A stretch of DNA of 37,803 nt, taken from contig DAHXMA010000025.1 of NCBI GenBank assembly GCA_027365725.1, positions 90,611-128,413 of the forward strand, given 5' to 3'. The notes below the pieces were generated by a model. The model was not told the DNA's origin, searched no databases, and saw only the letters and a list, made by a program, of their open reading frames with translations. The stretch's first letter is position 1. Every line of letters starts with the position of its first letter. The translations under genes were made by a program, and so were the position numbers. This document shows, one piece after another, positions 36,403-37,743 of this stretch. This stretch comes from Microcaldota archaeon (lineage in GTDB: Archaea; Micrarchaeota; Micrarchaeia; Micrarchaeales; CABMGC01).

Positions 36403-36652
36403 TGCCGCATTTCATCAGCTCAGTGCGACCGAACAGATTCCAAAAACTCTGCATTTTTATGCTTAATTATTGTGCCATAATATCTGTGTTCTGATAAGTG
36501 CTATGTTTGAGCTGGGATTGGGCTAGGCTGGAGCTTTGGCTTGATGGCAGCTTGGAGATAGGGCTAAAATTGCGTTCCGTATATTCGAACCCAACTGCTT
36601 TAAATATGGGCCTTGAACAGCATTAGATTCAGGTAGTTTAATGGATTCTGTT

Positions 36653-36666
36653 TGGAGGCACAGGGA
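36653..36666. repeat. Distal att-like copy of the tRNA-Val 3' end (TGGAGGCACAGGGA)
   Basis: Identical to 37664-37677, the last 14 nt of tRNA-Val on the complement. Confidence 0.85.
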
Positions 36667-36764
36667 TGTCACCTTAAATGCCCCTGTAAGACCTCGGTAT
36701 TTGCAGGTAAAAGCTGTTTTTAACGTCTGCTAGTATTTAATATCTTATAATCCTATAATCCGTT

Positions 36765-37388
36765 ATGGAAATCACATTCTCCAAAAGCAACATAACACTT
36801 AATCAGAAAGAAATTACGACTTTAGATAAATTAGTCATCAAGTTCATCGATGCAATGGGCGACGTTGACTATGTAATAGTTAGTGGCTACATAGCAATCT
36901 TTTTCGGAAGGATAAGGGGTACAGAAGATATAGATATACTACTAAACAAAATGGACATAAGACAGGTCGAAGAACTACACGTAAGGCTTCTCAAAAGTGG
37001 ATTTGAACCTGTCAACAACGTAGAAAATGCTAAAGATGCATACGATCTACTTTCTGAGGGATCGTCACTGCGATATGCTGAGAAAGGAACTTGGGCACCT
37101 AACTTCGAGCTAAAGTTCGTCAAGAAGCCTCTTGATAGGAATACCATGGACAACAAGATTAAAGTTACATTTAACTATAAATACTCAATGTATATATCTC
37201 CAATAGAACTGCAAGTCGCATTCAAGCTGTGGCTAGGCAGCGACAAGGATTACGAAGATGCGCGATACATTTATAATATTTTTAAGGCATATATTGATGT
37301 CAAAAAACTAAATGGATTTATATCCGAACTTCACGTAAAGAAAGAAATCGTAAAGAAAGTATTGGGCGAATTAAATGAAACAAAATAG
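36765..37388 (+). CDS. Nucleotidyltransferase-fold protein (AbiEii/MNT-like toxin-antitoxin family candidate)
   Basis: VIVSGYIAIFFGRIRGTEDIDILLNK (NTase G...DxD region) and ISPIELQVAFKLWLGSDKDYEDARYIYNIF, as in NTase-fold TA-type proteins. Confidence 0.65.
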   Translation: MEITFSKSNITLNQKEITTLDKLVIKFIDAMGDVDYVIVSGYIAIFFGRIRGTEDIDILLNKMDIRQVEELHVRLLKSGFEPVNNVENAKDAYDLLSEGSSLRYAEKGTWAPNFELKFVKKPLDRNTMDNKIKVTFNYKYSMYISPIELQVAFKLWLGSDKDYEDARYIYNIFKAYIDVKKLNGFISELHVKKEIVKKVLGELNETK

Positions 37389-37566
37389 CATTCTAACTGG
37401 CCTGAAGGAGGCAAAAGAGCTCAACCTTAGAAACAATTTGGAGTACATCGATGCATATTCCGATTATATAAAGAAGACGGACAACAAGACCTGGAGTAGA
37501 GGTCAGAAGAGATTTCTAGACATTTTGTACGCCAAAAAAAGAAGATCAAGGAAAATACAACTTTAA
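37375..37566 (+). CDS. 63-aa basic protein overlapping and probably coupled to the NTase gene
   Basis: ATG inside the 3' end of the NTase gene (14-nt overlap, +1 relative frame); Lys/Arg-rich C-terminus. Confidence 0.6.
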   Translation: MKQNSILTGLKEAKELNLRNNLEYIDAYSDYIKKTDNKTWSRGQKRFLDILYAKKRRSRKIQL

Positions 37567-37577
37567 TTCCATTAAAC

Positions 37578-37657
37578 TGAAAAGGTGGGGAATTGAACCC
37601 AACGATTTTTTCGAGGATATTAGTTTTTCTGCAAAAGCGTCTCTAGACGACAAATTC
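37578..37657 (-). pseudogene. Decayed tRNA (tRNA-Val-like) remnant
   Basis: Shares GGGAATTGAACCCA (37588-37601) and CTAGACGA (37643-37650), same order and strand, with tRNA-Val; degenerate acceptor GAATTTG/CCTTTTC; no proper anticodon arm. Confidence 0.6.
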
Positions 37658-37663
37658 TGGTAA

Positions 37664-37734
37664 TGGAGGCACAGGGAATTGAACCCAGGCCCGCGCCGTG
37701 TAAAGGCGCTATCCTACCACTAGACGATGCCTCC
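37664..37734 (-). tRNA. tRNA-Val(TAC)
   Basis: GGAGGCA/TGCCTCC acceptor, anticodon stem GCGCC-TTTACAC-GGCGC, T arm CTGGGTTCAATTCCCTG, discriminator A. Confidence 0.94.
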
Positions 37735-37743
37735 ATAATCCGC

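What the first reader, a model, noticed from the sequence alone, without database searches (positions are those of the whole stretch)
36765..37566. Candidate undescribed two-gene NTase / small basic protein module
A 207-aa NTase-fold protein (GRIRGTEDIDI, where the usual hG[GS] appears as SGY) overlaps by 14 nt a 63-aa Lys/Arg-rich protein (MKQNSILTGLKEAKELNLRNNLEYIDAYSDYIKKTDNKTWSRGQKRFLDILYAKKRRSRKIQL). AbiEii/MNT-type NTases are established toxin or antitoxin components. The tiny partner matches no partner family I recognise (neither HEPN nor AbiEi by eye). Residence on an att-flanked cassette fits a selfish TA or defence function.
Basis: partly seen in the sequence, partly recalled or inferred. 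Interest (0 to 1): 0.72.

Follow-up and report, generated by a model that had tools for sequence, protein, structure and literature searches.

The report
Archaeal nucleotidyltransferase toxin–antitoxin candidate module
Two overlapping genes in a small symbiotic archaeon, an enzyme related in shape to tRNA-damaging toxins and a tiny basic partner, turn out to be a mobile pair found across archaea that looks like an undescribed toxin and its antidote, carried as a 1-kb cassette parked at a tRNA gene.

Summary
A 207-aa nucleotidyltransferase (NTase; 36765-37388) overlaps by 14 nt a 63-aa basic protein (37375-37566) in a Ca. Micrarchaeota contig. The small ORF is a real gene: dN/dS is about 0.08, and it is conserved beside the NTase in every essentially intact Micrarchaeota copy with sequence downstream (62 of 65 full-length by HMM, 2 shortened, 1 divergent). 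The NTase profile finds 84 of 301 Micrarchaeota genomes and also other archaeal phyla; the same overlapping pair sits on haloarchaeal plasmids. No Pfam, NCBIfam or PADLOC model matches either window protein. The AlphaFold model of the NTase is closest in the PDB to the tRNA-modifying toxins MenT1 and MenT3; DxD and the Thr/Ser phosphoacceptor position are conserved. Intact partners survive where the NTase is deleted, frameshifted or interrupted; intact NTases without a partner were not found. This is the toxin/antitoxin signature, with the NTase as toxin. The window copy is a 1,011-bp unit between 14-bp repeats of the tRNA-Val 3' end; in relatives the same repeat bounds tandem cassettes (NTase+partner, ParE-type TA pair, Fic). 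Best reading: an undescribed archaeal family of MenAT1-like TA modules. Toxicity, neutralisation and tRNA target are inferred, not shown.

The parts
36765..37388 (+). NTase gene, 207 aa; predicted toxin (TxDxD at T53-D57, R103, E115, K117, K154, K161-D162, D165 conserved)
37375..37566 (+). 63-aa basic partner (16 K/R, 7 D/E), motif NxxWSxxQ; predicted antitoxin; 14-nt overlap with the NTase gene
36730..36743 (+). Conserved TATA-like element (TATTTAATA) about 25-30 nt upstream of the NTase ATG; candidate leaderless promoter; homology of the more distant copies starts here (36728-36736)
36653..36666 (+). Left attachment repeat TGGAGGCACAGGGA (copy of the tRNA-Val 3' end)
37664..37677 (+). Right attachment repeat TGGAGGCACAGGGA, the 3' end of the tRNA-Val gene
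37663..37735 (-). tRNA-Val(TAC) gene, the target site; its 3' end faces the module
37588..37601 (+). Second copy of the tRNA T-arm sequence GGGAATTGAACCCA inside the cassette's right end (possible older attachment remnant)

Best explanation
The two genes form a toxin-antitoxin module of an undescribed archaeal family. The NTase is the toxin. Shown: an NTase-like fold with conserved DxD and a Thr/Ser at the position of the MenT phosphoacceptor. Inferred: it transfers nucleotides to RNA, most likely extending tRNA 3' acceptor ends as MenT1 and MenT3 do, and so stops translation. The small protein is the antitoxin. Shown: obligate linkage, overlapping reading frames, a mostly helical prediction (long helix, loop with the invariant NxxWS, short helix), and retention when the NTase is lost. 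Inferred: it binds the NTase and blocks or inactivates its active site, as the unrelated 68-aa MenA1 does. The pair travels as a passenger cassette that enters tRNA genes at their 3' ends (shown by repeats and orientation); there it would act as a stability or defence device (inferred).
For: Pair conservation: every one of 65 essentially intact Micrarchaeota NTases with downstream sequence has a partner ORF; 62 are recognised full-length by the partner HMM. The same overlapping pair is on haloarchaeal plasmids and in other archaeal phyla. Selection: dN/dS about 0.08 for both. Fold: AF2 pLDDT 93.9, pTM 0.89; PDB best hits MenT1 8an5/8an4, E 2e-6, then MenT3; the profile search also gives MenT1 first, weakly (E 0.028). 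MenT1 is described in PMC10435456 and PMC11375011. Loss asymmetry: 19 Micrarchaeota loci keep an intact partner with a broken or absent NTase, against none with an intact NTase and no partner (P 0.006 if hits were proportional to gene length). On plasmids an IS5 transposase gene splits the NTase in Halobellus ramosii, and in Natronosalvus halobius a transposase gene lies between an NTase remnant and an intact partner; H. salinarum pNRC200 and Halorussus caseinilyticus keep only the partner. Mobility: tRNA 3' end faces the module in 25 of 26 cases within 1 kb (P 4e-7); 80% identity across families but 46% within the genus.
Against: No toxicity or neutralisation data exist. TM-scores to MenT1 are moderate (0.54, rmsd 6-8 A), so the substrate cannot be read from the fold. 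Part of the members weakly match lincosamide NTase models (15/60, best 2e-4). The partner has no detectable sequence relation to MenA1, and the gene order (toxin first) differs from MenAT1. If two shortened partners (L058, L067) count as losses, the length-proportional test is not significant (P 0.10). Some frameshifts may be assembly errors.
Confidence: 0.68

Rival explanations
1. Reversed roles, as in MNT-HEPN (type VII): the small protein is the toxin and the NTase is the antitoxin that nucleotidylates it, for example at the near-invariant Ser of NxxWS.
For: Type VII MNT antitoxins do this to HEPN toxins (PMC11586414, abstract); S41 is present in 54/55 partners; the partner is small and basic in Micrarchaeota.
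Against: Intact partners persist without the NTase in at least 19 Micrarchaeota loci and several plasmids, which would be lethal if the partner were the toxin. The partner is about 63 aa without a consistent HEPN R-x4-6-H motif (8/55) and is acidic in haloarchaea.
Confidence: 0.12
2. A small-molecule (antibiotic-type) nucleotidyltransferase with an accessory subunit, spread as a resistance cassette.
For: Weak matches to Lnu(C) in 15/60 members and Foldseek matches to ANT(2'')-Ia and LnuA at E 0.01-0.05.
Against: MenT1 scores three to four orders of magnitude better. Drug NTases need no obligate small partner, and orphan partners would have no use.
Confidence: 0.1
3. A mobile defence (abortive infection) operon in which the partner senses a virus and activates the NTase, rather than an addiction pair.
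For: Passenger cassettes at tRNA genes and plasmid location; AbiE NTases are TA-type abortive-infection systems (PMC3985639, abstract).
Against: No PADLOC match and no enrichment of defence genes beside it in the clusters seen. It overlaps with the TA reading and cannot be separated by sequence.
Confidence: 0.08

Closest known systems
MenAT1 (Rv0078B-Rv0078A) of Mycobacterium tuberculosis
   Same: About 200-aa NTase with TxDxD; the Thr aligned to the phosphoacceptor T39 is conserved here as T53 (T 54/60, S 6/60). Partner of about 65 aa, predicted long helix-loop-short helix as described for MenA1 (PMC10435456). NTase is structurally the best PDB match.
   Different: SGY instead of GGF; no DUF1814/AbiEii Pfam match for the window protein; partner unrelated in sequence; toxin gene first and overlapping; archaeal; carried on tRNA cassettes and plasmids.
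MenT3/TglT and AbiEii (DUF1814) NTase toxins
   Same: NTase fold, DxD, Thr/Ser before DxD
   Different: Larger toxins (about 290 aa); partners are COG5340/AbiEi-type proteins, absent here.
MNT-HEPN (type VII) modules
   Same: NTase plus small gene, abundant and mobile in archaea (PMC2701414)
   Different: No HEPN partner; partner half the size with an invariant NxxWS; loss pattern opposite to that expected.
Pfam DUF2204 / DUF6036 NTases
   Same: N-terminal NTase motif region matches in 26/60 (DUF2204, best 2e-6) and 6/60 (DUF6036)
   Different: The window member matches neither; the L123 match covers only about 40 residues.

Membership tests
Two-gene (type II-like) toxin-antitoxin module | Two small adjacent, co-directional genes conserved as a pair with no conserved third gene | tested here: met
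Two-gene (type II-like) toxin-antitoxin module | Patchy distribution and horizontal mobility | tested here: met
   84/301 genomes; plasmids; tRNA 3' end cassettes
Two-gene (type II-like) toxin-antitoxin module | Antitoxin may persist alone, toxin does not | tested here: met
   19 against 0 in Micrarchaeota, plus plasmid cases; weaker if two shortened partners are counted as losses
Two-gene (type II-like) toxin-antitoxin module | Toxin inhibits growth and antitoxin neutralises it | not testable with these tools
   needs expression assays
MenT / AbiEii (DUF1814) NTase toxins | Match to the AbiEii/DUF1814 model | tested here: not met
   Window protein: none; 6/60 relatives at E <= 0.1, best 0.02
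MenT / AbiEii (DUF1814) NTase toxins | MenT-like fold | tested here: met
   MenT1 best in the PDB, E 2e-6, TM 0.54-0.60
MenT / AbiEii (DUF1814) NTase toxins | DxD plus Thr/Ser phosphoacceptor | tested here: met
   T/S53 60/60, D55 60/60, D57 60/60, aligned to MenT1 TRDVD
MenT / AbiEii (DUF1814) NTase toxins | Partner homologous to MenA1 or to AbiEi/COG5340 | tested here: not met
MenT / AbiEii (DUF1814) NTase toxins | Adds nucleotides to tRNA 3' ends | not testable with these tools
   biochemistry needed
MNT-HEPN (type VII) | HEPN partner with R-x4-6-H | tested here: not met
   8/55 match the loose pattern, no HEPN Pfam hit
AbiE | AbiEi partner with winged helix | tested here: not met
   63-aa partner, no Pfam hit
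DUF2204 | Full-length match above the gathering score | tested here: inconclusive
   Window: none; L123 above cut-off over residues 24-64 only

The most novel reading that the evidence does not exclude
An archaea-wide family of tRNA-end-modifying NTase toxins with a new class of two-helix antitoxin. In Micrarchaeota it is moved as single-module cassettes that stack in tandem at tRNA 3' ends, each bounded by a copy of the tRNA end: an integron-like array of addiction modules without its own integrase.
Probability: 0.4. Interest if true: 0.78.

Novelty: new variant of a known kind. Interest (0 to 1): 0.64.

Why it matters
Few archaeal NTase toxins have been studied, and this pair has no family model in Pfam, NCBIfam or PADLOC although it occurs in over a quarter of Micrarchaeota genomes and on plasmids of culturable haloarchaea. 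It offers a testable antitoxin, small enough for direct structural work, and asks whether the tRNA-end-extension mechanism known from mycobacteria is shared by archaea. The tRNA-bound cassette arrays also bear on how streamlined symbiotic archaea with small genomes keep selfish modules.

Tried and rejected
Family scans of both window proteins: Pfam, NCBIfam and PADLOC gave nothing, PHROGs only weak hits. PDB sequence searches: nothing for the single NTase, a weak MenT1 hit with the profile, no MenA1 for the partner. Viral sources: IMG/VR scan and phage tblastn found no relative; the structural search of viral proteins gives only remote NTases. HEPN partner: rejected by size and motif. Natural fusion of NTase and partner: none found by a motif search of loci L005-L074. 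I modelled an in-frame read-through of L054 (NTase-TGA-V-TGA-partner; a modelling device, not a claim of read-through): pTM 0.80, partner helices at pLDDT 66-88; this supports a helical partner but does not establish an interface, as no inter-domain error was available. Two alignments for that job were discarded because MAFFT mixed NTase and partner ends. A divergent partner as plasmid query found nothing. L153 (G088) was judged not to belong to the family. The ORF after the interrupted NTase in G162 (L018) has no Pfam match, so I do not call it a transposase.

Full report
Observation. The window ends at the end of contig C17 of a Micrarchaeota genome (related records are Ca. Micrarchaeota MAGs). 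A conserved TATTTAATA element lies about 25-30 nt upstream of the NTase ATG in 12 of 12 close copies with minor changes, compatible with a leaderless transcript covering both genes; the overlap leaves the partner no intergenic space for a promoter of its own.

The small ORF is a gene. Across 11 close copies, median dN/dS is 0.082 for the NTase and 0.084 for the partner outside the overlap. In a search of 301 genomes of the phylum the NTase query finds 82 genomes, the NTase profile 84 and the partner profile 85. Of the Micrarchaeota loci I count 66 essentially full-length NTases (at least 165 of 201 profile positions in one frame). One (L021) is cut by a contig end. Of the other 65, 62 have a full partner by HMM, L058 and L067 have a shortened one lacking the NxxWS part, and L074 has a divergent 66-aa ORF at the same place. 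The counts are mine, from the table. Usual overlaps are 4, 13-14 or 17 nt. The partner's near-invariants are W40 (55/55), S41 (54/55) and N37 (52/55).

Reach. tblastn to plasmids found the NTase only in Halobacteria, 13 records at 32-39% identity, annotated 'hypothetical protein' where annotated, with an overlapping downstream small gene carrying the same motif (e.g. WSRQQNRLIDSQ). A wider genome search found 10 genomes outside the phylum. All eight intact NTases there with downstream sequence have a partner (L118, L120, L121, L123, L125-L128). Some members, inside and outside Micrarchaeota, form a divergent branch whose partner ends in a RLxxxPGGKxKIxxLFxIxN-like tail (L071, L120, L126, L156, L157).

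What the NTase is. No Pfam, NCBIfam or PADLOC hit for the window protein; relatives match DUF2204 (26/60, best 2e-6), DUF6036 and AbiEii (6/60 each, weak). The AF2 model is confident. Foldseek ranks MenT1 first (E 1.9e-6), then MenT3/TglT; drug NTases and CCA-adding enzymes come at E about 0.01 or worse. The profile alignment puts T53-E-D55-I-D57 on MenT1 TRDVD, so T53 corresponds to the phosphoacceptor T39 and D55 to D41 of MenT1 (PMC10435456, PMC11375011). K154, K161, D162 and D165 are invariant and are candidates for the remaining catalytic residues; I could not verify this residue by residue. The enzyme therefore looks active.

What the partner is. Predicted mostly helical: a long helix, a loop containing NxxW, a short helix (low depth). 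MenA1 is described as a long helix linked by a loop to a shorter helix, 68 aa, its first 32 residues being sufficient for antitoxicity when overexpressed (PMC10435456). This is a resemblance in architecture only; no sequence relation was detected. L058 and L067, which keep only the first helix, fit that picture.

Which is toxin. Intact partner with NTase damaged: L022, L057, L072, L073, L135, L143, L145, L146, L147, L150, L156 and the interrupted copy split between L018 and L151 (12 loci). Intact partner with no NTase: L130-L134, L137 and a second copy in L136 (7). Contig-edge cases are left out. Intact NTase without partner: none. If inactivation struck in proportion to gene length, 0 of 19 in the partner has P 0.006; counting L058 and L067 as losses gives P 0.10. 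Haloarchaeal plasmids repeat the pattern: an IS5 transposase gene splits the NTase in Halobellus ramosii; a transposase gene lies between an NTase remnant and the partner in Natronosalvus halobius; C-terminal remnants only in Natronosalvus rutilus and in one Natrinema gelatinilyticum copy; solo partners in Halobacterium salinarum NRC-1 pNRC200 and Halorussus caseinilyticus, the latter beside the same kind of sugar-isomerase gene as the intact pair of H. halophilus. This is what antitoxins do and toxins do not.

How it travels. The window module is a 1,011-bp unit between two exact copies of TGGAGGCACAGGGA, the 3' end of the tRNA-Val gene; homology to seven close relatives starts at 36650-36654 and in most ends near 37677. 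In G147 (L002) four copies of the repeat (4889, 5900, 6508, 7705) bound three successive cassettes: NTase+partner, a ParE-family toxin with a small DUF7557-matching partner, and a Fic protein, ending at tRNA-Val. L004 has NTase+partner and Fic cassettes plus the ParE-type pair to the left. Elsewhere the module sits by other tRNAs (Glu, His, Thr, Ile, Arg, Cys, Ala, Leu). The tRNA 3' end faces it in 25 of 26 cases within 1 kb (P 4e-7), with repeats of the tRNA end of 17-30 nt in L044, L061, L026 and L023. Loci from related genomes are not fully independent, so that P is an upper estimate of the support. No integrase lies in the 1-kb unit. Horizontal transfer is also seen as 80% identity to a member in another family (G236) against 46% within the genus (G146).

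Verdict. An undescribed, archaea-wide TA candidate whose NTase works, most likely, like MenT toxins and whose partner is a new antitoxin type. It is not filed as MenAT or AbiE because two defining features (DUF1814 match, MenA/AbiEi partner) were tested and not met. Gene-pair conservation, selection, orphan pattern, fold and mobility are shown by computation; toxicity, neutralisation and tRNA modification are inferred.

Noticed in passing
L002:4889-7775: Tandem cassettes at tRNA-Val(TAC), each bounded by the tRNA 3' end repeat: NTase+partner, ParE-type pair, Fic. Looks like an integrase-less, integron-like array of TA-type modules.
   Followed up: partly
window 37588-37601: A second tRNA T-arm fragment (GGGAATTGAACCCA) just before the tRNA-Val gene, also present in modified form in L001; possible remnant of an earlier insertion.
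   Followed up: no
L083:3001-3243: Orphan partner gene VNG_RS11965 on Halobacterium salinarum NRC-1 pNRC200 (a second NRC-1 plasmid record, NC_010369, is also hit), a genetically tractable archaeon, with no NTase beside it.
   Followed up: partly
L085:3051-4783 and L186:3543-5275: A DUF6036 nucleotidyltransferase next to an ArsR-type regulator lies beside the orphan partner on two Natronosalvus plasmids; a different candidate NTase pair.
   Followed up: no
L136:2362-2610 and L136 minus-strand module (G147:C19:86004-86751): G147 contig C19 carries an intact NTase pair and, on the opposite strand less than 1 kb away, a solo partner of another subtype.
   Followed up: no
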